The translations under genes and the position numbers were made by a program. Below are positions 8,845-26,750 of a stretch of DNA of 29,917 nt, one piece after another (position 1 is the first letter of the stretch; the number at the start of each line of letters is the position of its first letter). Where the stretch lies: NCBI GenBank assembly GCA_030616195.1, contig JAUWXW010000002.1, forward strand, positions 1-29,917, in the 5' to 3' direction. The notes under the pieces were generated by a model that worked only from the letters and a program-made list of their open reading frames with translations, searched no databases and was not told where the DNA came from. The stretch comes from Chloroflexota bacterium. Its GTDB lineage: Bacteria > Chloroflexota > Dehalococcoidia > RBG-13-53-26.

Positions 8845-9042
8845 ATGGACAGGGCTGCCAGACAGGGCAAGAAAATCGGTAGACCAAGGGTAACCGATAG
8901 GCGAGGCTTCCAAACCCGCTACAAAACTATTTTGGAGCGCCTCTCACAAGGAGAAATCTCGAGGCGACAGGCTGCTAAAGAACTTGGGATCGGCTACGCT
9001 ACATTGAAGAGGCTGTTGGATAGCAACTTCGCTGTTGGATAG
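8845..9042 (+). pseudogene. Serine recombinase/resolvase C-terminal helix-turn-helix remnant
   Basis: 65 residues with the unmistakable resolvase linker and DNA-binding domain: MDRAARQGKKIGRPRV followed by LSQGEISRRQAAKELGIGYATLKRLL. The roughly 130-residue N-terminal catalytic domain with its nucleophilic Ser is missing; in the same frame the preceding codons are unlike it, and the region 8690-8844 in other frames gives only unrecognisable peptide. A DNA-invertase or transposon resolvase once stood here. Translation of this piece alone is possible but no ribosome site precedes it. Confidence 0.7.
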
Positions 9043-11170: not shown

Positions 11171-11539
11171 TTATTTATTCATAACGCCCTTCAAATATGC
11201 ACCTCTTTTTTCTCCATCAAAAACTATTTGGGTTTTTTCTAATTGATCGGATAATCTTCGACAGATGGGGTGGCATAACTTGCGGTAGGTATCAATAATA
11301 GAGTTAGCTTCGGTTTTCATTGCTTGCGCCGCCATCAATCCACTTTGTAACGCATAACTAATCCCTTCACAACTGGATGGACTGATAAGACCTGCTGCCT
11401 CACCGACCAACAAAATATTATCAGTGCCGAATACGATTTCATTTAGATTGCCGATCATCGTTGCTGGATGCCCTTCTGTTTTCAAAACTTTTGTCGAGAT
11501 TTTCAGTTCTTCGGAAATCTTTTTTAAAAGCAGGTTCAT
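11171..11539 (-). pseudogene. Geranylgeranyl reductase family flavoprotein, C-terminal fragment
   Basis: 122 residues from an ATG at 11539 (AAAAGGAAAT before it). NILLVGEAAGLISPSSCEGI followed by SYALQSG is the FAD-pyrophosphate/C-terminal motif of geranylgeranyl reductases, which saturate prenyl chains of chlorophyll, menaquinone or archaeal-type lipids. The N-terminal two thirds, including the GxGxxG Rossmann motif, are absent; the frame is open further to 11713 but that part looks like out-of-frame sequence. A 47-codon ORF in another frame (11562-11705, MLPYHRAKIKVCSNYSMEVL...) fills the gap and is not recognised. Likely a decayed gene, possibly once linked to the adjacent prenyl-synthase cassette. 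Confidence 0.65.
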
Positions 11540-11676
11540 ATTTCCTTTTACTTTTTCCTTCCTACAAGAACTTGATAAAGGGGGCTTCTTCTTGGTGGTA
11601 TCTTTGAGATGTCCCATTCTTACAGTCGACATAGTGGGCGTCGAACAAGACCTCCATGCTGTAGTTCGAGCACACC

Positions 11677-11705
11677 TTGATTTTTGCGCGGTGATATGGT
11701 AGCAT
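11677..11705 (+). promoter_or_regulatory. Candidate promoter of the peptide/prenyltransferase/sensor cassette, TTGATT-17-TAGCAT
   Basis: Plus strand: -35 TTGATT (11677-11682), exactly 17 bp, -10 TAGCAT (11700-11705). Start expected near 11712, about 38 nt before the peptide ATG. Both hexamers match 4 of 6 positions, so a regulated promoter is plausible. Confidence 0.45.
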
Positions 11706-11749
11706 ACGCACACCTGTTTTGACCTTAACAGAGATACAGGGGGTATGAC

Positions 11750-11968
11750 ATGAGAAGTGGACGTCTAGCGGAGTTCATGAAAAGGGTGTTTACTGATGAG
11801 AACTTCAGACAGTCGTTTCTGTCAGAACCTGACAAGGCGATGAAGACGTTCGGGCTGAGCAAGAGGGCAAAGGGGGCCATACTGAGCATCGGCGTGGTAG
11901 CCGTAGCAGGTCTTACCGATGTCGCGCAGGTTCTGGCAGTCGTTGACCCTACAGCAATCTGGTTGTAG
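11750..11968 (+). CDS. ComX-like prenylated pheromone precursor candidate, 72 aa
   Basis: 72-residue ORF, ATG with AGGGGG six bases upstream. N-terminal half is an amphipathic leader, FTDENFRQSFLSEPDKAMKT then FGLSKRA, with the FRxxFLxxPxxAxxxxGL pattern common in leader peptides of modified peptides. A hydrophobic stretch (46-66) follows, and the peptide ends VVDPTAIWL, with a single Trp at position 71. ComX pheromones of Bacillus are cut from the C-terminus of 55-75-residue precursors and prenylated on a Trp near the end (for example ...ADPITRQWGD). The gene lies 31 bp before a ComQ-like synthase and upstream of a ComP-like receptor on the same strand. Identity with ComX at sequence level is slight; the call rests on size, the terminal Trp and the gene order. 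Alternative: an unrelated small membrane peptide. Confidence 0.6.
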   Translation: MRSGRLAEFMKRVFTDENFRQSFLSEPDKAMKTFGLSKRAKGAILSIGVVAVAGLTDVAQVLAVVDPTAIWL

Positions 11969-11999
11969 AGCTACAAAGCTCTGGTGCGGTTACTAGCGA

Positions 12000-12986
12000 A
12001 TGAGCTTAGAGAGGCAAACGGAGGCTGTCCAGGCGGAGATCATTGCTCTGCTGACTGGGGCGGGTGGTGATCAGGCGTTCTACGACATGGTGCGTAGATG
12101 GGTCCTCGATCGTGACAAAAGAGACTCTGAGGAAAGGTACTCGCCGTGGCCCCTTTTAACGCTCCAAGTGTGCGACGCGATATGTGGCGCTTGGGAACAC
12201 GCGGTGCCAGCTGCAGCAGCGGTAGAGCTTTATGCTGCCGCTGGTGACTTGCTCGACGATATCGAAGACGGTGACTATGACTTTATTCTGGAGCACGGAT
12301 ACAGTGTGGCGCAGGCTTTTAACGCGGTGGCTGGGCTATTCGTGCTCGGTCAGGAGGCGGTTACTAACCTGCTCGCAAAGAAAGTCCAGCCCCGGACTAT
12401 CATATCGGTAATGCACGCCATTACCTCCTCCGCGCTGGTTGGATGCAGCGGACAGCACGCTGAGTTTGATAGCGAAGGTGCCGACGTCTCCGAAGAGGAT
12501 TACCTGCGACTGGTGGAGATGAAATCGGGGGCATTAATCGAGTGTGTGTGTCGCGTTGGTGCTCTCCTGGCAACGGATGATCGAAGGATCGTAGATACTT
12601 ATGCCTTGTTTGGTAAGCGGCTAGGGGTGGCCGGCCAACTGGCAAACGATGCGAGGTCTATCATTAGCTCACGGCCGGGCCAGAGTGACATTGCCAGAAA
12701 GAAGAGGACGTTCCCTATCATCTATGGTTTGAAGCAGGATGATGGCCCGGAAGTTGATTTCTTGAAATCAGTAATCACCGGTCCGGGGGAAGTAACGCTG
12801 GACATGGAAAGCGAGGCAAGGCGGATACTTATGGCGCTGGGGGCGGTGCACTACACTCTGGTGCGGGCCCAGATGGAAAAGCAAAATGCGCTTGAGGCAA
12901 TAGAGAGCAGTGGCATTCCAGCTGAGGCCAACGCTAGGCTCCTTTCTTTGATTGGTCTTGACAAACACGATACCGACGTAGGGTGA
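12000..12986 (+). CDS. ComQ-like polyprenyl synthetase-fold protein (candidate pheromone prenyltransferase)
   Basis: 328 residues, isoprenyl diphosphate synthase fold. The first Asp-rich motif DDIED (86-90) is intact, GQHAEFD (151-157) and MKSGALIE (174-181) match conserved positions, but the second Asp-rich motif is degenerate: QLANDARSI (213-221) instead of DDxxD, followed by KKRTFPIIYGL. Loss of the second motif fits an enzyme that transfers a farnesyl or geranyl group to a protein rather than elongating IPP, as ComQ does to ComX Trp. Placed between the 72-aa peptide (31 bp) and the sensor (10 bp), so translated as one unit; its own Shine-Dalgarno is weak. Alternative: an ordinary prenyl diphosphate synthase supplying a lipid. 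Cytoplasmic, no membrane segments. Confidence 0.75.
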   Translation: MSLERQTEAVQAEIIALLTGAGGDQAFYDMVRRWVLDRDKRDSEERYSPWPLLTLQVCDAICGAWEHAVPAAAAVELYAAAGDLLDDIEDGDYDFILEHGYSVAQAFNAVAGLFVLGQEAVTNLLAKKVQPRTIISVMHAITSSALVGCSGQHAEFDSEGADVSEEDYLRLVEMKSGALIECVCRVGALLATDDRRIVDTYALFGKRLGVAGQLANDARSIISSRPGQSDIARKKRTFPIIYGLKQDDGPEVDFLKSVITGPGEVTLDMESEARRILMALGAVHYTLVRAQMEKQNALEAIESSGIPAEANARLLSLIGLDKHDTDVG

Positions 12987-12996
12987 AAACTTAGCC

Positions 12997-15789
12997 ATGT
13001 CTGGGGAAGCCACATCGACTAAATCGATGCGGTTTTCTTTTTGGCGTCCAATACTGCTTGCGGGAGGCGTCGCCAGTCTAGTCGCCACACTTGTCCTGTT
13101 CTCGCTGTCGGTCGATAGGCCCTTCGTCGGCGCGTCGATACGACACCAAGAACAGGGTATTTGGGTGGTTGGCGAAACGGACTACGGAGGCTTGGCTCGG
13201 GAGGCCGGTATTGCTCCTGGCGATGTTGTCTTGGCCGTCAATGGCCAGAGTATCGAAGAATTTATCGAACAACATGGAAGGATACCTCCAGGAGGGATCC
13301 ACGAACTTGAAGTAATTGATAATGCTGGTACGGAAAGAGTTGTGTCAGTTGCTGGGGCTGCATCTTCGAGAGAAGGCTTGTACGAGCCTATAGGCTTTCT
13401 AATCTTGGGCCTGGTGTTTTGGGTCACAGGCAATATCGTCTACGCTAAACGGCCAGGTCACAAAGCGGTTCTGCCCTTATATCTCCTGGGACTCGCAGTT
13501 CCTCTTGCCCTAATGGCGATAATCGCAACGAGTAGATGGAGCACGGGGACGCTAATACTTGAGGCTATCACGTATGTATTGATACCTGGTCTCCTTGTAC
13601 ATTTCTTCCTGCAGTTCCCCCGGGAGAAACGCCTGGTCGCTCTCCACCCATCAATCCTCTACCTTTGCTATGCTCCTGCTATTGTTCCCCTGAGCCTATT
13701 CTTTCTCTTTCGGCAGAGTTGGCATCTTTTCGACCCATATGTTAGAGCCCCGCTATTAGGCTATTTCTCACTCGGGCTGGCAATAGCTGCTGTGAGCCTA
13801 GCGCATAGCTACGTTACGCGACACTCGCTGCAGGAGCGGCAACAAATCAGGATTCTCCTTGTAGGGATGTTAGTCGGTATTGTGCCCTTTGTGGCTCTCA
13901 GCGCTGTGCCTGCTGTCCTAACTGGTGAGCCCTTGGTGGCACCTGGACTCAGCATTATGAGCGCAATTGCTGTCCCCATCACATTGGCTTACATCCTCTT
14001 GAAACGCCAGCTGATGGACATTGACTTCTACCTCGGTCGTGCTCTGGTCTACGGTATGCTGGTTGCCTTCGTGGCATGCGGGTACGTGTTGATAGCTCTG
14101 GGTTTAAGATTGGCGACCAGTACGCTAGAGCAGGCCTCTCTCATCGCTACAGCTGTAGTGTTTAGCACTTTGGTAGCGATTTTCTTTCACCCCTCTAAAG
14201 CAAAGGCGCAGCAGCTAGTCGATCGGTGGCTATTCAGAGAGCGGCTAGCCTATCATCAAGCTTTGACGTCCATAGCGGATACATTGTCCACCTTCAAAGA
14301 TGCCGATAGCTTGGGCCACTTTGTGACCGAGGTGACCACAAAAACGATGCACATCTCGGGATCTTGCCTACTGCTGCACGATGTCTCCAAGGGCTTGATC
14401 ATCAAAGCTGCGGCAGGTGAACTGGCTGACCCTAACATCCAAACTGAGATTGTCAGCGAGGGCCGCCGCTTGTTGGAGAAGAAGGGACCGATAGTTGCTG
14501 CTCCCGAGGGGTTTGCAACTGCGTTGCTGGTCCATCTCTCAGTGCGAGACAGGGCACTTGGCGCTTTGCTATTGGGCCCGAAGGCCAGTGGAGCCAGCTT
14601 CACTGCAGACGAGTTTCAATTTCTTTCTAGCTTTGCAGGCCAGGCGGGATTAGCCATAGAGAACGCCCAGTTGCTGGAGCAAACGAGAGAGCTATCGGTA
14701 ACCGATGAACTGACGGGGCTCTACAACCGTCGCCACTTCTACGACGTACTCGAGACTGAGATGTCCCGCACCCAGCGCTATGACCGGTCTTTTTCTGTGG
14801 TAATGCTAGACCTTGACGGGTTCAAACAATACAATGACAGGTTTGGACACACCAATGGCGATAGCGTCCTGAAATCGCTTGCACGAACCCTCAGGTCATC
14901 ATTGCGGAGGGCCGATACGGCTTTCCGCTACGGGGGTGACGAGTTCACCATCATCTTGCCAGCAACGGATGCTGAGAGAGCTGAGAGGATTATTGATCGT
15001 ATCAGATCAAAATGGTTACTAGCGCCCAAAGCGGACCATCTCGTTCTGGAACGTCCTCTTGGCTTGAGTGCCGGGATCGCTGAGTTTCCTGAGAATGCTG
15101 AAACCGCGGACGGCCTGGTATTCCTGGCCGACACCGCCCTCTACCATTCCAAGAGAGATGGAGGATGCAAAACTACGCTGGTATCTGCTCTGGGGGCACC
15201 TGAGACAGACGTGTTGGACAGGGCAATGGTGGAGCAGGTCTACGCCCTGGCAGCTACGGTAGATGCAAGAGACTCATTTACCTACGGTCACTCAAAGAGG
15301 GTCGCCGCCATATCCGAAATGATAGGCAAAGCAATTGGGCTATCAAGAGATAAATTGGCGACCCTGGACGCTGCTTCTCTCCTCCACGATATTGGCAAGG
15401 TGGGCGTCTCTGACTCGATCCTGACTAAACCTGGTAAGCCAACAGAGGATGAATGGAAACTCATAAGGAAGCACTCTGCTGAAGGAGCGCGGATAGTTGC
15501 CTATGTTACGGGACTGGCACCGCTGGTGCCCGCTATCCGGCACCACCACGAGTGGTATGGGGGGACGGAATACCCGGACGGATTGAAGGGCGAAGATATA
15601 CCCCTTGGCGCCAGGATCATAAGCATAGGTGACGCCTATGACACTATGACTACGCCGCGTACCTATAGGGATGTAGTGTCTCAGCAAGAGGCCCTTGAGG
15701 AGCTCAGGCGATGTTCCGGCACCCAGTTTGACCCTGAGCTTGTTGAGGTGTTCTGCAGGGCCATCGATGAGGCTGCGAAGCAGGACTAG
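12997..15789 (+). CDS. ComP-like membrane receptor fused to GAF-GGDEF-HD-GYP cyclic-di-GMP output
   Basis: 930 residues; ATG with GGGTGA overlapping the stop of the ComQ-like gene. Order: membrane helix (about 18-38); extracytoplasmic PDZ-like domain (about 42-120, GLAREAGIAPGDVVLAVNGQ); six or seven further helices (about 130-395) containing LMDIDFYLGRALVYG; GAF (about 413-565); GGDEF (566-730) with intact GGDEF at 646-650 and an RxxD inhibitory site at 637-640; HD-GYP (about 740-930) with HDIGK (797-801). The GYP motif reads EYP (858-860) in HHHEWYGGTEYPDGL. Bacillus ComP has the same PDZ-plus-helices input half but a histidine kinase output. Here the signal would set cyclic-di-GMP synthesis or hydrolysis. 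Similar input halves occur in other Chloroflexota sensors, so ligand identity is inferred from the operon. Confidence 0.85.
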   Translation: MSGEATSTKSMRFSFWRPILLAGGVASLVATLVLFSLSVDRPFVGASIRHQEQGIWVVGETDYGGLAREAGIAPGDVVLAVNGQSIEEFIEQHGRIPPGGIHELEVIDNAGTERVVSVAGAASSREGLYEPIGFLILGLVFWVTGNIVYAKRPGHKAVLPLYLLGLAVPLALMAIIATSRWSTGTLILEAITYVLIPGLLVHFFLQFPREKRLVALHPSILYLCYAPAIVPLSLFFLFRQSWHLFDPYVRAPLLGYFSLGLAIAAVSLAHSYVTRHSLQERQQIRILLVGMLVGIVPFVALSAVPAVLTGEPLVAPGLSIMSAIAVPITLAYILLKRQLMDIDFYLGRALVYGMLVAFVACGYVLIALGLRLATSTLEQASLIATAVVFSTLVAIFFHPSKAKAQQLVDRWLFRERLAYHQALTSIADTLSTFKDADSLGHFVTEVTTKTMHISGSCLLLHDVSKGLIIKAAAGELADPNIQTEIVSEGRRLLEKKGPIVAAPEGFATALLVHLSVRDRALGALLLGPKASGASFTADEFQFLSSFAGQAGLAIENAQLLEQTRELSVTDELTGLYNRRHFYDVLETEMSRTQRYDRSFSVVMLDLDGFKQYNDRFGHTNGDSVLKSLARTLRSSLRRADTAFRYGGDEFTIILPATDAERAERIIDRIRSKWLLAPKADHLVLERPLGLSAGIAEFPENAETADGLVFLADTALYHSKRDGGCKTTLVSALGAPETDVLDRAMVEQVYALAATVDARDSFTYGHSKRVAAISEMIGKAIGLSRDKLATLDAASLLHDIGKVGVSDSILTKPGKPTEDEWKLIRKHSAEGARIVAYVTGLAPLVPAIRHHHEWYGGTEYPDGLKGEDIPLGARIISIGDAYDTMTTPRTYRDVVSQQEALEELRRCSGTQFDPELVEVFCRAIDEAAKQD

Positions 15790-16026: not shown

Positions 16027-17643
16027 TCATGACGAGGCAGTGCGAAGATGGCCTTTAGACTCACGGTCAATATTGTCAAGCTGTCGGCAAGCAAAATCTA
16101 AGGTTTCAACGTCTATGCTCCCCTTCCTTTGCTCCCTCAGCCTCTGTCCACACTCTTCTGCAACTTGCGCAAGTTGCAACTCATAGGCACAACTTGGCTC
16201 ATTTCTGATCCTGCCCAATTCTGACATACAGCCAGGCACAACTATAGAAATATAGCCTAGTGCTGCCGCCTGCCTTATCTCCCAAGCTTGATCACCTAAA
16301 AGCCCTCTTTCCAGATGTTCAGACAGTGCACACATTACTTTGCGATAGCCATCAGATGCATCCCATTGCACATCTTCAGCCAGTTCTTGTTGCCCCAGGT
16401 ATCGGTGCGCCTTTCCCCCGGCGAGTGTGATCGTCACCGTCGTGAAGCCGCGTGGCAACTTGCTCAACGATGCACGATTTGCAGAAGTCAATTTCAGGAT
16501 TTCATCAGGAAAATCTTGCTGATCTACATAGAACGCGTGCCAACAGGTGCCTTCGCATTTCCCTTTCGAATCGGGTAAAACATCGTCAATGCGCTTGTAT
16601 CCCCTCCTCTTGTATACACCTACAATCTGCACAATGCTGATATCGAAGTCTGCCTTGCTCAGCCTCTCAAATCCTTCAAACTTGGCTCCGATTTGCTTCA
16701 AAGGGCTGAAAACCGGGTCTGGGGAAAGAGCTACCAGTTTAGCTCTTTCAAGTAGCTCAGCCGCGCCATAGGCTATTCTAGCCTGAACTTGGAGGCGTTT
16801 CCGTTTCGCCACCTCTATTTCAAGGCTGGACCCTGTAAAGGTCTGGTATACGCCCCCTAGAAATGCCCTTCTGTTCCACTCTTGAAGCTCATCTGCAAGG
16901 ATCAGGAAACAAAGCTCGGGGCACCCGGCGATTTTCATGCGAGAGAGCAGGCCCGGCTCTGCATGGTGCAGGGCTATCGCCAGTAGAGCGTCAAGCGATT
17001 GTTTTTTGTGCTCAACCTTTAACGTCCTCCAAGTTAGAAATGCGCCCGCGACATCGTGTTCACTCGTGCTTTCCAACCTTCTGCTAAAATACTCTTTCAT
17101 TTCCCTGTAATTTGCACAAATGCTTGTGGCAGCGATGCTGGCCATATCATGTACAAATCTATCATTGTCTTCTTTGCTTGTAGACAGCTCTTTGCTTATG
17201 TCAACAAGCTGGGTCACGTCGTGGAATAAACAAGTTAGCGCCAAAGACCTAGAACTGACTTTGCCATTCATCGTCTTAGCCAGATAAGAAGCTAGAAGAA
17301 AGACCCTGATCATGTGGTCGATGTGATCCCGATAGAACTTCCTTTTCACTTCAGACTTGTTCACCGCCGCCCTCGCTTCCAAATCGGGCATCTTATCAAT
17401 ATATGTTGTAATGGATCTCTGCTTGAACAGCCCTCCCAGTAGCCCCCCTGGGCTGCAACACGCATTGAAAACTCGCCACCCTGAGGACAAGCCTTTACCG
17501 AGTATTGGACCCTCTGACCTCTGTCGGTGCAGCAACTCCTCCAGTTGCTCGGACCACAGATTAAATGCTTGTGTCTCCTCGTCGGAAAGCTGAGCACATT
17601 CTTGCAGGTCGCGAACTAGCCGCCTGTCGGTTACCAGATCCAT
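16027..17643 (-). CDS. HD-domain protein of unknown function
   Basis: 538 residues, ATG with AGGGG eight bases upstream. An HD phosphohydrolase-type core lies in the N-terminal half: YRDHIDHM (H110), LFHD (H141-D142), SEHDVAGAF (H196), ALHHAEP (H226-H227) and LADELQEW (D251), so the metal ligands appear complete. Such domains cleave nucleotides or phosphodiesters. Before it is a Cys/Gly-rich segment (NACCSPGGLLGGLFK, 60-74). Residues 330-538 match nothing I know; there is no membrane segment. Downstream of, and codirectional with, the PD-(D/E)XK gene (105 bp gap), possibly one transcript. Not a relA/SpoT or dGTPase by visible motifs. Role in defence is suggested only by the neighbours. Confidence 0.75.
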   Translation of the reverse strand: MDLVTDRRLVRDLQECAQLSDEETQAFNLWSEQLEELLHRQRSEGPILGKGLSSGWRVFNACCSPGGLLGGLFKQRSITTYIDKMPDLEARAAVNKSEVKRKFYRDHIDHMIRVFLLASYLAKTMNGKVSSRSLALTCLFHDVTQLVDISKELSTSKEDNDRFVHDMASIAATSICANYREMKEYFSRRLESTSEHDVAGAFLTWRTLKVEHKKQSLDALLAIALHHAEPGLLSRMKIAGCPELCFLILADELQEWNRRAFLGGVYQTFTGSSLEIEVAKRKRLQVQARIAYGAAELLERAKLVALSPDPVFSPLKQIGAKFEGFERLSKADFDISIVQIVGVYKRRGYKRIDDVLPDSKGKCEGTCWHAFYVDQQDFPDEILKLTSANRASLSKLPRGFTTVTITLAGGKAHRYLGQQELAEDVQWDASDGYRKVMCALSEHLERGLLGDQAWEIRQAAALGYISIVVPGCMSELGRIRNEPSCAYELQLAQVAEECGQRLREQRKGSIDVETLDFACRQLDNIDRESKGHLRTASS

Positions 17644-17748
17644 GCACTACCCCTGCTCAGATTGTATTTATTATTGGGAACTCCTCTGGATCATTCAGCA
17701 CATAGAATTCCCGGGACCTACGCCTCGCTGAGGCGATCAAACATTCTG

Positions 17749-18477
17749 TTAGCCACTTGTAAGGTTCGCGAGACTGGCTATCTGGATTAATCGCTCGAGC
17801 GACTCGCAGTCCCGGCACCCGAGCGTGTGCGCGGGCGGCATCTCCTCGTCGCCTATCTCATTGACCCGCTGGAGCAATTCTTCAATGAATTCGTCTGGCT
17901 TGATTTCGACGCTCACCGCTTTCGGCTTGAAGCCCAGCATCAGCTGGCCCTCTGAGCGGCTCAGCAGGCTTGGGTTCGAGTCGAAATCCGTGTCCGGCTC
18001 CAAGTACACCAGGGTCAGGGTCGATGCCGGGGAGAAGACGGTTCGGTTCCCGATGTAGGCGTACGCGTTCAACTGAACCTCGTATCTGGGGAAAAGCTCG
18101 CCTTGGGTGGCTGTGAACCTGGCGGTCTTGTAGTCCACTATGTGGTATGCACCGCCTTCCAGCTGGAAAACATCATCGGGTACTCCCCGGAGCGTGACGC
18201 CTGTTTGAGGATTGGTAATGGAGAACTGCCGCCACGAGGGCACTTTCTCCGGTTTGACCACCTCGCCAACTTGTGGAAACCAGTCAGGCAGTTTCTGCTC
18301 TCTATCCCAGTACCTGTGCACAACATTCTTGATATATGCGTCGATGGAGCTGAATATGCCGGGCATAGGTATTTGGAAAGGTAGCCTGTCGCACTTAAGC
18401 TTTATCCAGAAGCATCTAGGGCAGAAATCGGGGAAGGCAAGATCCCCGAGCGTTCCAGCTGAGATGGTCAAGGGCAT
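17749..18477 (-). CDS. PD-(D/E)XK nuclease family protein with two Cys pairs (RecB/Cas4-like)
   Basis: 242 residues; strong GGGGGAGGAAA site before the ATG. Nuclease core motifs in order: RGVPDD (D101), VDYKT (D115, K117), then YEVQLNAYAY (Q135, Y139), as in RecB/Cas4-type PD-(D/E)XK enzymes. A CPRC pair near the N-terminus (C19, C22) and a CRDC pair near the C-terminus (C221, C224) flank the core in the way iron-sulphur-cluster Cys do in Cas4 and AddB, although the spacing is not identical. There is no CRISPR array or cas gene in the window. Upstream partner of the HD protein. Its promoter overlaps a 19-bp inverted repeat. Confidence 0.82.
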   Translation of the reverse strand: MPLTISAGTLGDLAFPDFCPRCFWIKLKCDRLPFQIPMPGIFSSIDAYIKNVVHRYWDREQKLPDWFPQVGEVVKPEKVPSWRQFSITNPQTGVTLRGVPDDVFQLEGGAYHIVDYKTARFTATQGELFPRYEVQLNAYAYIGNRTVFSPASTLTLVYLEPDTDFDSNPSLLSRSEGQLMLGFKPKAVSVEIKPDEFIEELLQRVNEIGDEEMPPAHTLGCRDCESLERLIQIASLANLTSG

Positions 18478-18556
18478 TTTCCTCCCCCTTTGAACCCTTT
18501 CAGCCTACTCCGTCAATATTGATTCGCTTGTTCTTGCACGAGGTTAACTGAGCAGT

Positions 18557-18589
18557 CGCAATATATCATATTGCGTATCATGATTTCAA
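18557..18589 (-). promoter_or_regulatory. Promoter overlapped by a 19-bp inverted-repeat operator
   Basis: CGCAATAT-ATC-ATATTGCG (18557-18575) is a perfect inverted repeat. On the minus strand it covers the -10 TATATT (18560-18565) and half the spacer of a promoter whose -35 is TTGAAA (18584-18589, 18-bp spacer). This is classic repressor geometry for the PD-(D/E)XK/HD transcript, in the divergent region before the 575-aa gene. Confidence 0.6.
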
Positions 18590-18724
18590 TAGCAAGGCTC
18601 GCTGGGCAGTCCTATTTGGACCAGATATTCAGATCACCTGAAAAAATGTTATTGCGCTAACAGCGATTCACACTCCTCTCTTTGACATACTGCTTTTCAA
18701 TGACTGCACTCAATCGCAGATAAT

Positions 18725-18937
18725 ATGGATTCTGCCCTTAGTCATATCCAGAATTCTGTAAATACGTATCTAAATGAGCAAGATTGTAAAACAACTGGGT
18801 ATGATGTTACTATCTCATATATGGATAGCCTATTTGATGGCCGAGATAGATGGAGGCCATTCTTAAGATTGAGTTGCTCGAGGATAGGTATTGGATATCA
18901 GGCAATCAATTTCATCTCTTCTCAAGAATACCCTTAG
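18725..18937 (+). CDS. Possible 70-aa protein overlapping the next gene
   Basis: 70 residues, MDSALSHIQNSVNTYLNEQD... ending FISSQEYP, overlapping the start of the 575-aa gene by 47 bp in another frame. There is no clear Shine-Dalgarno and no family is recognised. It may be real and translationally coupled, or the frame may once have been joined to the next gene by a single indel. The rest of the 18478-18890 gap holds the operator described separately. Confidence 0.3.
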   Translation: MDSALSHIQNSVNTYLNEQDCKTTGYDVTISYMDSLFDGRDRWRPFLRLSCSRIGIGYQAINFISSQEYP

Positions 18938-20618
18938 AGACGCGGGTCTTACTGATGGGGCCACATATGAAGAGGGCGACCTGAGGCCTGTTCTACTTAG
19001 CTTCTTGGGGGTTCTTGAGTCTCTGACCTCTGACGTTTGCAGGCCCTATAACTCTTTCGGGCTACTTTGTGCACTCCAGCACCGTATTCCATTTGGAATC
19101 TCAACCCCTCGAAAGGGATTTGAACCTGATGCACAAATACTCTTTAATGATGCTGCCGCCTTGGCCTTTCGATTTTCCTCGTCAACCGAGGATGCCAAGG
19201 TGAAATTTACACCTGCTGACTACGACAAAGTCGCCGCAACTGACGATCTATCTTGGTTAAATGACTTCCCCTGGGCTGTTGAGAACATATACGCCCTTGT
19301 TGGTGCAATTAACTATGTAGTCAAGAGTCTTCGAAATCTTGGCAAAGGTGCTATGGGGATACCCAATTTTAAATCAGATGATATTTCTACAATACTGACA
19401 GTTAAAATGCCGTCACAATTAAGACAAAAGGTACGCAAGTATGATGAACGCGTAATTCAAAATGCAGATGTTCTTATGCTCTACGGCCTGCCTGGAGCTG
19501 TTTCTGAAGCTAGGGGACCGCTATGCTATGTTGTCATACACCCCAATTGGTCTGAATTTCGCAAAGGGAATACAAGTCCACCTCCGAAAGCACAGTTGTT
19601 AAACATGCAAGGGCTTTATGCGGCTACTACCCTGCATGATCAGGAAGTTAAGCGAATATTTGGGTCACGAGTCTATGTTGAAGATTTGTTCGCCTTTCTA
19701 GCCACACTCTTTGAACCCTTGATTGAGAAGGTTCACCAAGCAGAACGCTTTGCTGGGCAAGGATACACTTTTTCTCAAGAAGAAGACCTCATTAAGTACA
19801 TTGTACGTAGAGCGCCTGATGTCTATGCTCATTGCTATGAGCAACTGTTTCAGCATTGCTATCCTGGAATCATTCTTGAATGCTTCACACACGAATACTG
19901 GCAGGAGGTCGCGCCCAAATTGCTTGATTTCATTTCGCATGATTTTGAATCTAGACATTCTATCGATTGCCAATTATTTCGTCCTAAGCGATTTGCCTAT
20001 AGATGTGATTGTGGGGCAATTTTCCTACATTTGGGATCCGTCACTCATTTCTTTGCCCATCTATGGGACGGCTTCGAACCAACGGGCGACTTCCATAGCA
20101 TAAAGGGTCCTATATTTGAAGAACTTCTCCTCAATTTACTCGAATCAATTGAGGGATTCACCCGTATTTGGGATACGGGTCGAAAACTAAAGTTCCCTGT
20201 GGAAGGCAAGATTGGTACGGATATTGACGTGTTTATTCGCAGAAAAGAACTGGCCTTCCTAATCAGTTGCAAATCTTACAGTATAAATCGCAAATACGAA
20301 CTCGGTGATGGCCAGGCCTGCTGGGATAGGTCAGAAACGGCAAAATCATGGTTTCGATTTGCTTATGAGTCGGTCAAGGTTATTGCTGCCCACCACCAAG
20401 AATTACATATACCTCCTGAAATTGAAGGTATATGCCCCCTTGTTTGTACTGGCTGGCCTGAGTATTTGCATGAACCATCTGAGCAGTATTATATGGAAGA
20501 TGGGACACCTAGAATAGCAACAATAGATGAAATCCGGCATTTTTTCGAAAGCATGGATGATATTAAGGCGAATAACTTACTGCATGACGCTTATACGGTT
20601 CTTATAAATTCCCCTTAA
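18891..20618 (+). CDS. Unknown 575-aa protein with a PD-(D/E)XK-like C-terminal region
   Basis: 575 residues from a TTG (GAGGATAGGT upstream; an in-frame stop two codons earlier excludes a longer version). The N-terminal 400 residues are not recognised; they include a CDCG motif (372-375) and a nearby HFFAHLW that could bind zinc. The C-terminal part resembles a restriction-type nuclease: a helix with E410/E411 (GPIFEELLLNLLE), then GTDIDVFI (D444, D446), a turn, and LAFLISCKSYS with K461. The usual acidic residue of (D/E)xK is Ser here, so activity is uncertain. Base composition is more AT-rich than the flanks, suggesting transfer. Forms an island with the nuclease, HD and AlbA_2 proteins. 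Confidence 0.72.
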   Translation: MDIRQSISSLLKNTLRDAGLTDGATYEEGDLRPVLLSFLGVLESLTSDVCRPYNSFGLLCALQHRIPFGISTPRKGFEPDAQILFNDAAALAFRFSSSTEDAKVKFTPADYDKVAATDDLSWLNDFPWAVENIYALVGAINYVVKSLRNLGKGAMGIPNFKSDDISTILTVKMPSQLRQKVRKYDERVIQNADVLMLYGLPGAVSEARGPLCYVVIHPNWSEFRKGNTSPPPKAQLLNMQGLYAATTLHDQEVKRIFGSRVYVEDLFAFLATLFEPLIEKVHQAERFAGQGYTFSQEEDLIKYIVRRAPDVYAHCYEQLFQHCYPGIILECFTHEYWQEVAPKLLDFISHDFESRHSIDCQLFRPKRFAYRCDCGAIFLHLGSVTHFFAHLWDGFEPTGDFHSIKGPIFEELLLNLLESIEGFTRIWDTGRKLKFPVEGKIGTDIDVFIRRKELAFLISCKSYSINRKYELGDGQACWDRSETAKSWFRFAYESVKVIAAHHQELHIPPEIEGICPLVCTGWPEYLHEPSEQYYMEDGTPRIATIDEIRHFFESMDDIKANNLLHDAYTVLINSP

Positions 20619-20944
20619 AAGTTGGCTAGGAATGATCATTCCTGTGTACGTAGTCAGCAAAGGTATGACAATATGGCCCTATAATTAATGGGTATTTAAT
20701 AGGCCATTGCCTTGCTCCCTAGCAGTTCCATTGTAATCCCTTCTTGCATGTAATGTCCTTTTTGCTTGCTTTTTTCAGACGATACTTTATTTCCCTGGGG
20801 AGCGGGAGCAAGCCCCTAGGTGCCTATCAACTTTTGTTACAAATGTATTCCTTTTCTCATGATGATCTACAGCCTCAGCAATTGCTGGCTAGAAACCAAT
20901 CCCGTTTTTATTGAATATAGCAACTAGAAAAGATAGAATAAACT
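20619..20944. other. 326-bp intergenic region with a 16-bp palindrome
   Basis: AGGAATGATCATTCCT (20628-20643) is a perfect palindrome 10 bp after the stop of the 575-aa gene; no T run follows. A GC-rich dyad CCTGGGG...CCCCTAGG lies near 20795-20820. No ORF of note. The right end carries the promoter of the AlbA_2 gene. Confidence 0.45.
20911..20939 (+). promoter_or_regulatory. Promoter TTGAAT-17-TAGAAT adjoining the start codon (leaderless transcript?)
   Basis: -35 TTGAAT (20911-20916), 17 bp, -10 TAGAAT (20934-20939). The start of transcription would fall at about 20945-20948, exactly on the GTG/ATG that opens the AlbA_2 gene. Confidence 0.5.
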
Positions 20945-22123
20945 GTGATGAGGAGGAAAGTGTTAAGTAGTCATTATATAAATAGACTGATTACCGGAGG
21001 AGAGTTCACTAAATTTGACCTCAAGGCTGAGCTGTGTTGCAAAACCAAGTCAGAGAAAGCGGAGCTAGTCAGGCACATAATCGCAATCGCAAACTCGCCC
21101 GGCAGAGTAGGACACCTTCTATTCGGTATCTATGACAATAGACAGCCATCGGGTGCATTAGATACGAGTATATCAGAAGAACAAATTCAGAAGATAGTAA
21201 AAGAATATGCTGAACCCTATATTGAAACCTCATACGAGATAGCAACATTTATGGGCTTGAGTATCGGACTTCTAACCATTATTAGAGAAGCCAAGAAATT
21301 GCCGTATAGATTTAGAAAGACTGTCGGGGGTGACAAGGAGGTCATAAACAAGGACGACATCTTTTATCGACATGGCAGACATTCTGAGAAAGCCAGCTAT
21401 CATGAGATAGAAGAATTGATCTTAGAAGGTACTGAGGCACGCCATAAAACGATATCAGCAGTACGAACTCGGTTTGACGATAAATATGCAACGCTGAACG
21501 TAGCGAATAGGAAATTCGAGATGTTGACAGACTTAATAGAGACCTTGTTTGATAACTTGGGGTTTACTGAAAGGCTATGGAACCTGGAAAAGAGAATCCG
21601 CCCAGCGATGTCCTACCAAGTGTATCCTCAGCTACGCGAGGGCTACAAGTTTGATGTCGAAATTGCAGATAAGATTGTAGGTATGCATCACTACTTATTT
21701 ATGTTTTATGTCCACCCCTTTGACATAGAGCGATATCACCATCTTGAGTTCCATAGATATGCCTTTGAAATGGTTCCAAAGGGCACAAGGGTTGCGGGCA
21801 GCTGGAAGAGATTTGTTATCATACTTACCTATGGTAAGACCACCAAAGTGACCTTCAAACGATTCATTGAGCCTGCCACCACGAACATCTTGGTAAAAAC
21901 ATCCTTTGGATTTTACTGTGGTCCGAGTGAGCTTACCCGCCGTACTTTGTATACTTGGGAACCCAGATTATATTTGACCAATATCGTATCGAAAGAGTGC
22001 ATGGAAGTGAGATTGCAAGAGGCACTAAGATGGATTGAAGAGAATCCAGACCTCGCAGAACCAGCAATCAAGATAACTCCTCCATTTAAAAGGCTTCCTG
22101 CCACTGAAGTTGTAATTATTTGA
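20945..22123 (+). CDS. AlbA_2/Schlafen-type DNA-binding domain protein
   Basis: 392 residues from GTG (or ATG three bases on). N-terminal AlbA_2 domain (PF04326-like): GEFTKFDLKAEL, then KAELVRHIIAIANSPGRVGH with LLFGIYD, and IFYRHGRHSEKASYHEIEEL around 135-160, all characteristic. The C-terminal 230 residues are unassigned. Family members bind or cleave nucleic acid and recur in phage-defence loci and as transcriptional regulators. A downstream GTG preceded by AGGAGGAAA (20960) is another possible start, though the spacing is short. Last sizeable gene of the bracketed island; AT-rich like the previous gene. Confidence 0.8.
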   Translation: MMRRKVLSSHYINRLITGGEFTKFDLKAELCCKTKSEKAELVRHIIAIANSPGRVGHLLFGIYDNRQPSGALDTSISEEQIQKIVKEYAEPYIETSYEIATFMGLSIGLLTIIREAKKLPYRFRKTVGGDKEVINKDDIFYRHGRHSEKASYHEIEELILEGTEARHKTISAVRTRFDDKYATLNVANRKFEMLTDLIETLFDNLGFTERLWNLEKRIRPAMSYQVYPQLREGYKFDVEIADKIVGMHHYLFMFYVHPFDIERYHHLEFHRYAFEMVPKGTRVAGSWKRFVIILTYGKTTKVTFKRFIEPATTNILVKTSFGFYCGPSELTRRTLYTWEPRLYLTNIVSKECMEVRLQEALRWIEENPDLAEPAIKITPPFKRLPATEVVII

Positions 22124-24801: not shown

Positions 24802-24911
24802 CAGTGTAGTCCTATCTGATCGTTCCCTCTTCGAGGGACCCTCGTGCCGGGTCTTTGACCCGCCTCGATTGATGACCAAAGATGTTCGCTGGCCTGAGTG
24901 CCGGGAAAGGA

Positions 24912-26750
24912 ATGGCTAAGCCGATGAAAAAGATTGCAATACTTATGGCGATAGTGCTGATTTCAGTATTCGCCTCAGCGGTCTCTGCTGATGCTCAAAC
25001 AGCAGGCCGTGGCAGTATTGACAATCCACACCCAGGAGGCAGTTCGACAATAGTTGCAACCTGTGGCGAGGGCTTCCTTGAAGACAGGGAAGAGATGAGA
25101 GTCCTACACGTCAAAGGAACGCCCTACGAGATGGGGTACCAGCACGGCTTTTTGCTTGCCGACGACATACTAGAAGACTGTAGCATAGTAATGATATTAG
25201 TTGCTTTACAGCTGTGTGGTACAATAGACGTTTCAGCCGCTTTGGACTGTCTGCTGCTCGATGCACAAGCAGTGGAGCCATACATTCCAGCTGAATATAT
25301 GGAAGAGCTGCAGGGGATCGCCGACGGACTGGCAGCTGCGGGGTCGCCCCTGACCTACGAAGACATTCTGATATGGAACACATTCGCCGATGTTGTGCTT
25401 TACAAATGCAGCACTTTTTCGGCCTGGGGTGATGCAACGACCGACGGCAAGCTGGTTTTGGGCAGGAATACCGACAGCTACGTTATACCGGAGATCCAGC
25501 AGAAGCCCACTGTATTGGTGGCGCAGCCGGACAGTGGATATGCCTTCATTCATCCCCTTGTTACCACCGGCTATGGGAGACCGGGCTCAATCGGAGGCAC
25601 CGTGGGAATGAACGAAGCCGGGATAGTCGTCGCATTTCATACCAGTCGTTCGGAGAACGAATCCATGCTGGGTACCCCGTCAGCAATGATCGTAAGGGAT
25701 ATCTTGCAATACGCGGGCAGTATCAATGAAACCGTGACCATACTGAGCGACTCCCCTAGATGTGTTGGCCTAAACTACCACGTAGCCGATGGCCAAGCCG
25801 GTGAAGCAGCGGTGATAGAGACTTCAGCCACGGAGATAGAGGTCCGCTACAGCGAACCGGGCAGCGATGTGCTCTGGACTACAAACCACTATAACTGCTA
25901 TCCAGGTTGGCAGGGCTATCTTGGGTACAATATGGTGCCTGGGCAGGCCCCGGTGTACGGTCTGGCAGACATAAGCACAGTGGAAGCATGGCAGGCCAGC
26001 CTCTCAACTTCCGCACCAGGTACCTTCCAGCGTTATCAGAGGTATGAGCAATTGCTTAGCGAAAACTACGGGGCGATAACCATCGATACCGCGATCGATA
26101 TTGTGAGCGACCGCTATGACATGGTCGAGGGCAGGGAGCTAGGTTGGACCGAATATGGGGATGGGTATCCCATTTGTACCTTGGGGCCAGTCTTATACAC
26201 CTTCCCCGATGTCCCTTATTACAAGAGCGGCGAAACAGGGTCGCTCACAATGCAGAGGTCTACACCCCTAAGCCTGGCAGCAGTTCCGGCTGATGGGGTC
26301 ATTCGGATAGCACTGGGTGGAATTCCAGCATGCGCCGGACCATACGTATATTTCGACCTGTCGGAAGAACTTGCTGATGGTGATGGAGATGGTGTCGTAG
26401 ATGCTATTGATAATTGTCCAGCTGTTCCCAATCCTGGGCAAGAAGATCAGGACGGTGACGGTGTAGGAGATGTCTGCGATAACTGCCCAGCCGTCCCCAA
26501 TCCTGGCCAAGCAGACGAGGACGCTGACGATGTAGGTGATGCCTGTGACTGTGATGCCGATGGACTCTGCACTGCACGAGCCTTATGCCACGGACAAGGA
26601 ACACCCGACCCCGACTGCCCCATCGGCCCCGTCGGCGGGACCATAGTCCCCACAGACAAGCTCGGACTGGTAGCGCCCTGGATGTTAGCGGCAGCACTGA
26701 TAGTGGCTGCTGGTGTGTCGCTGGCTATCTGGAACAGAAAACGGGCATAA
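24912..26750 (+). CDS. Secreted C45-family (Ntn-hydrolase) protein with TSP3 repeats and C-terminal membrane anchor
   Basis: 612 residues from ATG 24912; ATG 24924 (MKKIAIL...) is equally possible, with AAAGGA at 24906. Signal peptide to about residue 28 (VSADAQ). Middle: acyl-CoA:6-aminopenicillanic acid acyltransferase-like domain with [20 protein letters not shown], where Cys166 would be the autocatalytically exposed nucleophile, and GRNTD just after. C-terminal: two to three thrombospondin type 3 calcium-binding repeats (489-544, [20 protein letters not shown] and a copy). Tail 573-612 has [16 protein letters not shown], a hydrophobic helix and RKRA, the layout of a sorting/anchor signal. 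Family members hydrolyse amides (bile salts, N-acyl amines, penicillins); the substrate here is unknown. Cell-surface location follows from the signals. Confidence 0.85.

What the first reader, a model, noticed from the sequence alone, without database searches (positions are those of the whole stretch)
11677..15789. Candidate ComX-ComQ-ComP-type prenyl-peptide signalling system with a cyclic-di-GMP output
Three adjacent plus-strand genes with gaps of 31 and 10 bp encode, in order, a 72-aa peptide with its only Trp next to the C-terminus, an isoprenyl-diphosphate-synthase-fold protein with one good and one degenerate Asp-rich motif, and a receptor with a PDZ-plus-multihelix membrane input. This is the parts list of the Bacillus ComQXP system (ComQ prenylates a Trp of ComX; ComP senses it). 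Known ComQXPA loci, to my knowledge, are Firmicutes and use a histidine kinase plus ComA. Here the receptor carries GAF-GGDEF-HD-GYP and no response regulator follows, so quorum information would go directly to a second messenger. The order (X, Q, P) also differs from Bacillus (Q, X, P).
Basis: partly seen in the sequence, partly recalled or inferred. Interest (0 to 1): 0.95.

Follow-up and report, generated by a model that had tools for sequence, protein, structure and literature searches.

The report
Prenyl-peptide signalling wired to cyclic-di-GMP
Three adjacent genes encode a small peptide whose tryptophan near its tail is kept in every relative compared, an enzyme related to the one that puts a lipid on a Bacillus signal peptide, and a membrane receptor whose input part resembles that signal's receptor but whose output part consists of cyclic-di-GMP enzyme domains; together they would likely form a bacterial cell-to-cell signalling system that speaks directly to a second messenger.

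Summary
In detail: peptide (11750-11968), synthase-like gene (12000-12986) and receptor (12997-15789) lie head to tail with gaps of 31 and 10 bases. The triplet recurs. In 393 genomes of one Chloroflexota class, 12 carry a synthase of this kind and 13 the peptide; the same 12 carry both, and in the 13th the synthase ORF is cut short beside a transposase-like ORF. The tryptophan is invariant in 17 of 17 aligned peptides. The synthase lacks the GKxxR and RR motifs of chain-elongating enzymes and falls with ComQ, not with canonical synthases. The receptor's PDZ-plus-ten-helix input is homologous to ComP, but its output is GGDEF-HD-GYP; three related loci end in HD-GYP alone (L004, L087, L089), the others typed in histidine kinases. 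The peptide is not ComX: its leader is NHLP-like, as in PalX of Paenibacillus alvei, whose partner PalQ prenylates a C-terminal tryptophan (PMC10853753). Best reading: a ComQXP/PalXQP-like prenyl-peptide signal with the kinase exchanged for a cyclic-di-GMP enzyme. Prenylation, export, sensing and the direction of the cyclic-di-GMP change are inferred. New variant of a known kind.

The parts
11750..11968 (+). 72-aa precursor peptide: NHLP/Os1348-like leader and a C-terminal end DPTAIWL with the only Trp at residue 71
12000..12986 (+). 328-aa ComQ-like (trans-isoprenyl-diphosphate-synthase-like) prenyltransferase, predicted to prenylate Trp71
12240..12275 (+). first Asp-rich motif (DDIED, residues 86-90) and its flanks; the RR motif that follows it in canonical synthases is missing
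12636..12659 (+). degenerate second Asp-rich motif (QLANDARS, residues 213-220): the Gln is kept, the first and third Asp are lost
12997..15789 (+). 930-aa receptor: TM1, PDZ, nine further helices, GAF, GGDEF, HD-GYP
13123..13356 (+). PDZ domain between TM1 and TM2 (residues 43-120), the likely peptide-binding part
14677..15186 (+). GGDEF diguanylate cyclase domain (residues 561-730) with intact RYGGDEF and RxxD inhibition site
15187..15786 (+). HD-GYP phosphodiesterase domain (residues 731-930): the His and Asp residues that align with solved HD-GYP enzymes are present, but GYP reads EYP

Best explanation
Three co-directional genes encode a precursor peptide with an invariant tryptophan near its C-terminus, a ComQ-like enzyme predicted to attach an isoprenyl chain to that tryptophan, and a ten-helix PDZ receptor, homologous to ComP in its input part, that would sense the processed peptide and likely change cyclic-di-GMP through its own GGDEF and HD-GYP domains. 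Shown here: the gene arrangement and its recurrence, the conserved Trp, loss of the GKxxR and RR motifs with the first Asp-rich motif kept, the grouping with ComQ, the homology to the ComP input, and intact GGDEF residues. Inferred: prenylation of Trp71, removal of the leader, export, binding of the peptide by the PDZ and membrane module, and the cyclic-di-GMP response. Neither the chain length nor whether binding favours synthesis or hydrolysis can be told from sequence.
For: Co-occurrence: 12 synthases of at least 241 bits and 13 full-length peptides of at least 52.9 bits in the same 393 genomes; 12 genomes have both, Fisher p = 5e-22 (genomes are related, and the synthase cut was drawn after seeing the loci). 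In the 13th (G196) the synthase ORF is cut to 214 aa beside a transposase-like ORF. The next 18 synthases by score (L030-L047) show neither the peptide nor a membrane receptor, 0 of 18 (about 1.5 kb seen on each side, L031 only 172 bases downstream). Trp invariant in 17 of 17, 25 of 26 distinct peptides picked by profile from all loci have a Trp within the last 3 residues and the 26th has it 6 from the end. GKxxR and the RR after the FARM are absent in 29 of 29 candidate synthases of this group and 5 of 5 more distant ones; of 22 canonical rows printed, 22 have GKxxR (19 GKxxRP) and 18 RR (4 RH). Two proteins taken as ComQ (annotated polyprenyl synthetase, each followed by an annotated comX and a kinase gene) lack the same motifs and score higher on the candidate profile (141.0 and 113.4 bits) than on the canonical one (84.6 and 57.9). 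In a 97-row tree the 61 canonical rows are split from all 34 candidates and both ComQs with support 100/100. ComP N-termini against the receptor input profile: hhalign 97.9 and 98.6%, E 5.8e-13 and 1.1e-15; two reversed ComPs, a flippase and 20 block-shuffled ComPs give at most 12%. tblastn of the receptor input against 72,556 plasmid records hits 5: two Priestia records (4e-8) and two labelled Stenotrophomonas (3e-3), of which one of each was opened and the match is the kinase next to a comX gene, plus a Deinococcus kinase. GGDEF and HD-GYP residues. Precedent: PalQ prenylates the C-terminal Trp of an NHLP-leader peptide encoded next to a kinase gene (PMC10853753, parts 1-3 of 4 read).
Against: No prenylated product, secretion or response has been measured. 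The first set of peptides was picked with a filter for Trp near the C-terminus, and the profile used later was trained on it; free of that filter are the three database homologues (3 of 3 keep the Trp) and, in part, the profile-only hits. The peptide is not detectably related to ComX. PalQ loses activity if residues follow the Trp (PMC10853753), whereas this peptide and most relatives carry one residue after it. No exporter or leader peptidase was noticed beside the triplet. The PDZ score is only just above its cut-off here, and no Pfam PDZ is reported at E<=0.1 in the related receptors of L006, L007, L085, L089 and L090 or in the more distant ones of L010 and L012-L015. The receptor input model has modest confidence (pLDDT 71.8). 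The HD-GYP motif reads EYP. A similar input is found on SpoIIE proteins (P0129-P0131) with no known peptide link. The GGDEF-HD-GYP triplet is seen directly only in this window; for the nearest relatives (P0003, P0124, P0125) linkage is inferred from a shared contig length of 16,572 bases.
Confidence: 0.66

Rival explanations
1. The product is a prenylated, membrane-active natural product (an antimicrobial RiPP), and the receptor senses it for autoregulation or self-protection rather than for counting neighbours.
For: The leader resembles the NHLP RiPP type; regulation of a peptide antibiotic by its own sensor kinase is known for lantibiotics (recalled); among antimicrobial peptides prenylated with PalQ, activity was highest with the C10 chain (PMC13290415, passages read).
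Against: No immunity, exporter, peptidase or further tailoring gene was noticed beside the triplet (eight neighbouring ORFs were scanned with Pfam, the rest read by eye); neighbouring genes differ between the more distant loci, though L003, L006 and L007 share theirs, so the constant set is peptide, enzyme and receptor.
Confidence: 0.15
2. The prenylated peptide is not secreted: it stays in the producing cell as a membrane-tethered cofactor or ligand of the receptor, so the system reports isoprenoid supply or membrane state rather than cell density.
For: No exporter or leader peptidase noticed beside the triplet; hydrophobic segment before the C-terminus.
Against: The PDZ lies between TM1 and TM2, which is outside the cell in the published ComP model (PMC9620489, passages read); the closest functional precedent, ComX, is secreted without a transporter gene in its locus (recalled).
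Confidence: 0.12
3. The enzyme is an ordinary or altered isoprenyl diphosphate or terpene synthase, and the peptide is a regulatory subunit.
For: PF00348 match and isoprenyl-synthase fold; canonical synthases have an overall similar structure.
Against: GKxxR and RR motifs are missing in all 34 candidates compared, and the enzyme splits from canonical synthases together with ComQ; the peptide's conserved residue is a near-terminal Trp, which a mere subunit would not need.
Confidence: 0.05
4. The association is a chance neighbourhood of unrelated genes.
For: None found.
Against: The arrangement recurs in samples of three classes (those of L002, L012 and L011), with joint presence and absence in 393 genomes.
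Confidence: 0.01

Closest known systems
ComQXPA quorum-sensing locus (Bacillus and relatives; loci on Priestia megaterium and Anoxybacillus plasmids read here)
   Same: Peptide with a near-C-terminal Trp, enzyme without GKxxR and RR that falls on the same side of the tree, ComP-homologous receptor input with a PDZ between TM1 and TM2 (PMC9620489 passages)
   Different: Peptide is NHLP-like, not PF05952; order X-Q-P instead of Q-X-P; GGDEF-HD-GYP instead of a histidine kinase; no ComA; relatives are Chloroflexota, where a census of genomes to the end of 2013 found no comQXPA (PMC4008528, abstract passage: none outside Firmicutes)
PalP-PalX-PalQ of Paenibacillus alvei (PMC10853753)
   Same: NHLP-leader precursor with conserved C-terminal Trp, trans-isoprenyl-synthase-like Trp prenyltransferase and a receptor gene side by side
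   Different: PalP is a histidine kinase; PalQ needs Trp at the very end, here one residue usually follows; the parts of the paper read do not show PalX to be a signal; no PalQ sequence was compared here
Ord1, farnesyltransferase for free Trp (PDB 9v4g-9v4j)
   Same: Fold match (Foldseek rank 15) and profile match (81.6 bits, rank 6 of 90); Gln before the second motif
   Different: Acts on free Trp according to PMC13290415 (section 9 read), no peptide partner
RpfR, the BDSF receptor with cyclic-di-GMP output (listing and abstract starts seen)
   Same: A quorum signal acts directly on a cyclic-di-GMP enzyme
   Different: Fatty-acid signal and a soluble PAS-GGDEF-EAL protein (domain make-up recalled), not a prenyl-peptide and a membrane PDZ receptor

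Membership tests
ComQXPA | Synthase of the ComQ type with an intact first and a degenerate second Asp-rich motif | tested here: met
   (the tree shows a split from canonical enzymes, not a resolved ComQ clade)
ComQXPA | Precursor of the ComX family (PF05952) | tested here: not met
   No PF05952 match for the window peptide or any of 17 aligned peptides; hhalign of ComX against the peptide profile stays within the shuffled range. A search of six genomes with PF05952 gave only sub-threshold hits away from the locus, but Bacillus subtilis in its control did not pass the cut-off either, so that search says little
ComQXPA | Trp near the C-terminus of the precursor | tested here: met
   17 of 17; 26 of 26 within the last 6 residues
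ComQXPA | Receptor with ComP-type input (PDZ between TM1 and TM2, multi-helix) | tested here: met
ComQXPA | Histidine kinase output and ComA response regulator | tested here: not met
   GAF-GGDEF-HD-GYP output, no regulator downstream
ComQXPA | Isoprenylation of the Trp and secretion of the pheromone | not testable with these tools
   needs mass spectrometry
PalXQP type | NHLP-type leader on the precursor | tested here: inconclusive
   Window peptide 25.1-25.5 bits, below curated cut-offs of 34-40; all 17 aligned members match NF038399 at E<=0.5, best 5.6e-12
PalXQP type | Trp as the very last residue | tested here: not met
   Trp71 of 72 here; last residue in P0123, P0124 and L004
PalXQP type | Sequence homology to PalQ itself | not tested
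   No PalQ sequence was in hand
Cyclic-di-GMP enzymes | GGDEF active-site motif and RxxD inhibition site | tested here: met
   RRADTAFRYGGDEF
Cyclic-di-GMP enzymes | HD-GYP metal-binding His and Asp residues | tested here: met
   Aligned with solved HD-GYP enzymes; which residues bind metal is recalled
Cyclic-di-GMP enzymes | GYP motif | tested here: not met
   EYP in the window, GYP in P0125-P0127
Canonical GGPP or polyprenyl synthase | GKxxR and post-FARM RR motifs (their role in IPP and diphosphate binding is recalled) | tested here: not met

The most novel reading that the evidence does not exclude
This is a peptide-pheromone circuit in which the membrane receptor of a prenyl-peptide is itself a cyclic-di-GMP enzyme, with no phosphorelay: a ComP-type input on exchangeable outputs (kinase, hybrid kinase, HD-GYP, GGDEF-HD-GYP). 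Chloroflexota would hold the broad reservoir from which both the ComX-type and the PalX-type systems can be read as branches.
Probability: 0.5. Interest if true: 0.9.

Novelty: new variant of a known kind. Interest (0 to 1): 0.82.

Why it matters
If true, quorum sensing by isoprenylated peptides is not a Firmicutes speciality but occurs in several classes of Chloroflexota, a phylum whose cell-to-cell signalling is little known, and the signal can feed straight into a second messenger. The set of receptors with one kind of input and four outputs is a natural domain-swap series for working out how ComP-type sensors transmit a signal. It also gives more than twenty new candidate tryptophan prenyltransferases with their cognate peptides.

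Tried and rejected
ComX membership of the peptide: tested and rejected (one search is uninformative because its Bacillus subtilis control did not pass the cut-off). By eye ComX and the peptide leader look alike; the profile comparison did not support it.

Ordinary isoprenyl diphosphate synthase: rejected on motifs and tree. The degenerate second Asp-rich motif alone does not discriminate: several canonical enzymes of the same class also read ND there. The conserved Gln before it is also present in the canonical enzymes, so it is no evidence on its own.

Diversifying selection as in Bacillus pherotypes: only a rough look; against three close relatives the last six residues of the peptide are 33, 33 and 67% identical while leader residues 10-48 are 77-85%. 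Too few sequences for a claim.

Promoter and terminator scan: no plus-strand promoter-like site upstream of the peptide gene between 11300 and 11750. Phage records: no match for the synthase. Plasmid records: 16 matches, of which three were opened, two comQ-like and one canonical. Window's own genome: not held. Taxonomy of the window itself was not tested; Chloroflexota is inferred from the record titles of relatives. The PDB comparison with L013's synthase did not show the Ord1 alignment that I wanted.

Not in print, as far as searched: searches list no paper whose title or shown abstract describes such a locus in Chloroflexota or a prenyl-peptide receptor with a GGDEF or HD-GYP output. Supplements could not be read, and most subscription papers are not held.
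Full report
What is there. The finding's three genes are real and correctly described, with one correction: the peptide begins at ATG 11750, six bases after a G-rich ribosome-binding-like stretch; 11677 is upstream sequence. Peptide 11750-11968 (72 aa, one Trp, residue 71), synthase-like protein 12000-12986 (328 aa), receptor 12997-15789 (930 aa). Pfam gives PF00348 for the second protein and PDZ, GAF, GGDEF and HD for the third. The next ORFs of 150 aa or more downstream are on the minus strand, so there is no linked response regulator.

The peptide. It is not ComX: no PF05952 match. Its first 50 residues match NHLP-type RiPP leaders weakly (TIGR04509 E=1e-5, NF038399 E=1.4e-5, both below curated cut-offs), and all 17 peptides of alignment A3 match NF038399 at E<=0.5, best 5.6e-12. 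Only Leu36, Ala43 and Trp71 are invariant in the 17 rows. A caution: the first peptides from loci were picked with a filter for Trp near the end, and the profile was trained on nine of them; the three database homologues were found without it and keep the Trp. A wider count by profile alone over all loci fetched gives 26 distinct peptides, several nearly identical: 25 have a Trp within the last 3 residues, the 26th six from the end. Two small ORFs next to synthases of the Ktedonosporobacter class, with no leader recognised by the profiles, also end in WWV and FWV (L104, L106).

Recurrence. The three genes stand in the same order in L001, L002, L003, L004, L006 and L007, and after fetching more sequence in L085, L086, L087 (start of its synthase unsure), L088 and L090; L005, L008, L009 and L089 are cut by contig ends. 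L016 and L017 are unrelated synthases without the triplet. In a sample of 393 genomes of the class of L002 (record titles: Dehalococcoidia and Dehalococcoidales), 12 genomes hold a synthase scoring at least 241 bits. Of these 12, 11 show the peptide upstream and 11 the multi-helix receptor downstream; the exceptions are contig ends (for G040 the peptide contig carries 58 codons of a synthase start). The next 18 loci by score (238.6 to about 202 bits) show neither, 0 of 18; four have another ORF of over 300 aa downstream, without membrane helices, and L031 shows only 172 bases downstream. The cut between the two sets was drawn after seeing this. An independent search with the peptide profile found 13 genomes with a full-length hit (52.9 bits or more; the next hit is 30.8 bits and covers only the leader): the same 12 plus G196, where a truncated 214-aa synthase ORF and a transposase-like ORF follow the peptide. 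Fisher's exact test on 12/0/1/380 gives 5e-22, with the caveat that genomes are related. In a sample of 400 genomes of the phylum, 7 exceeded 240 bits, all of them genomes of this class already seen. More distant forms: of 16 matches in 15 of 47 genomes of the class of L012, 11 have both a peptide recognised by the profile and a membrane receptor within the limits of the script, 5 do not (a twelfth peptide, in L099, was picked up); of 3 matches in 150 genomes of the class of L011, 2 have both.

The enzyme. The AlphaFold2 model, made from 18 sequences, has mean pLDDT 90 and its best PDB matches are isoprenyl diphosphate synthases, with the Trp farnesyltransferase Ord1 at rank 15. Compared with canonical synthases, all 29 candidate rows and 5 more distant ones lack GKxxR and the RR that follows the first Asp motif; of 22 canonical rows printed, 22 have GKxxR (19 GKxxRP) and 18 have RR (RH in L040, L042, L044, L045). 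Not all 29 are known to be linked to a peptide (P0009-P0018 are database proteins without context). The DD of the first Asp motif and the Gln before the second are kept in all candidate rows printed, and one Lys in all but P0016 (Arg) and L028 (Thr). That the lost residues bind IPP and the allylic diphosphate is recalled knowledge of the family. PMC13290415 (section 9 read) states that the second motif is repurposed for Trp recognition in Trp prenyltransferases and that the first motif holds the allylic donor.

ComQ for comparison. A tblastn of the window enzyme against 72,556 plasmid records gave 16 records. The best (Anoxybacillus) and the third (Priestia) were opened: in each the matched gene, annotated only as polyprenyl synthetase, precedes an annotated comX and a histidine kinase; the second (Streptomyces) is a canonical enzyme without such neighbours; the other 13 were not opened. 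The two ComQs lack the same motifs and score higher on the candidate profile than on the canonical one (141.0 against 84.6; 113.4 against 57.9 bits), while the Streptomyces synthase does the reverse (102.2 against 291.7). In a tree of 97 rows the 61 canonical rows are one side of a branch with support 100/100; the 29 candidates, 5 distant candidates and both ComQs are on the other side. The order inside that side is not resolved, the 29 are not one clade in the tree drawn, several branches are long and the root is unknown, so this shows a split, not a proven common origin.

The receptor. Hydrophobicity gives ten helices and the model places the PDZ between the first two; Foldseek matches of that part are PDZ domains of CtpB, AlgW and DegS, none below E=0.001. 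The published model of Bacillus amyloliquefaciens ComP has ten helices and a PDZ in the same place (PMC9620489, passages read). Profile comparison of ComP N-termini with the receptor input gives 97.9 and 98.6% probability (E 5.8e-13, 1.1e-15), and with only the four GGDEF-bearing receptors 95.6 and 96.2%; two reversed ComPs, a flippase and 20 block-shuffled ComPs give at most 12%. A tblastn of the receptor input against the plasmid collection hit 5 records: two Priestia (4e-8) and two labelled Stenotrophomonas (3e-3), of which one of each was opened and the match is the kinase next to a comX gene, and one Deinococcus kinase that matches only the last quarter.

Outputs. Linked receptors with full sequence end in HisKA-HATPase (L001, L002, L088), PAS-HisKA-HATPase-REC (L003, L006, L007, L085, L086, L090; L005 cut), HD-GYP without GGDEF (L004, L087, L089) or, in this window, GGDEF plus HD-GYP. 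The more distant L010-L015 have kinases. P0125-P0127, 58-72% identical to the window's input, also carry GGDEF and HD-GYP; P0125, peptide P0124 and synthase P0003 share a longest contig of 16,572 bases, which suggests but does not prove linkage. The window's GGDEF is intact with an RxxD site; its HD-GYP keeps the His and Asp residues that align with solved enzymes but reads EYP for GYP.

How it most likely works. The enzyme transfers an isoprenyl chain from an allylic diphosphate to Trp71, as PalQ does to the C-terminal Trp of an NHLP-leader peptide (PMC10853753, parts 1-3 of 4 read) and ComQ to ComX. The leader is removed by an unlinked protease and the lipidated C-terminal piece leaves the cell; the PDZ and membrane helices of the receptor bind it, as proposed for ComP; the GAF linker passes the signal to the GGDEF and HD-GYP domains and the cyclic-di-GMP level changes. 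All of these steps are inferred. A tension remains: PalQ does not tolerate residues after Trp, while this peptide has one.

Novelty. ComQXPA was reported as absent outside Firmicutes in a census of genomes to the end of 2013 (PMC4008528, abstract passage); a later survey says that chloroflexi contain the kinase-regulator pair of that pathway, without naming ComQ or ComX there (PMC8895600, passages read). Direct coupling of a quorum signal to cyclic-di-GMP is known for fatty-acid signals through RpfR (search listing). I found no report of a prenyl-peptide receptor with such an output. It works like ComQXP/PalXQP; it is not a member of ComQXPA in the strict sense, because the ComX family, kinase and ComA tests were not met. 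I file it as a new variant of a known kind.

Noticed in passing
P0129, P0130, P0131: Proteins whose input region resembles this receptor's, with PDZ matches of varying strength, but ending in a SpoIIE phosphatase, with no known peptide link.
   Followed up: partly
L091 (G196:C1:1112000-1125000): A peptide-synthase-receptor locus in which the synthase ORF is cut to 214 aa next to a transposase-like ORF; a kinase receptor follows about 1.1 kb further on.
   Followed up: partly
L118 (plasmid of a record labelled Stenotrophomonas rhizophila): A comX gene with kinase and response regulator on a plasmid attributed to a gammaproteobacterium; the label may be wrong.
   Followed up: no
L104 and L106, directly upstream of the synthase: Small ORFs ending in LSWWV and AAFWV without a recognisable leader, possibly diverged precursors.
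   Followed up: no
window 11171-11713, minus strand: A 180-aa ORF with no Pfam match that reads like the C-terminal part of a geranylgeranyl-reductase-type flavoprotein (my reading), possibly a gene remnant beside the prenyl locus.
   Followed up: partly
window 16027-22123: A stretch with an HD-like protein (sub-threshold), a PD-(D/E)XK nuclease, a 575-aa protein without Pfam match and a Schlafen AlbA_2 protein, which may be a defence or mobile island.
   Followed up: partly
window 24882-26750: An acyl-transferase-like (AAT) protein with thrombospondin type 3 repeats and a hydrophobic C-terminal segment.
   Followed up: no
window 8845-9042: A 65-aa ORF whose best Pfam match is the helix-turn-helix of resolvases, possibly a remnant of a mobile element.
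   Followed up: no
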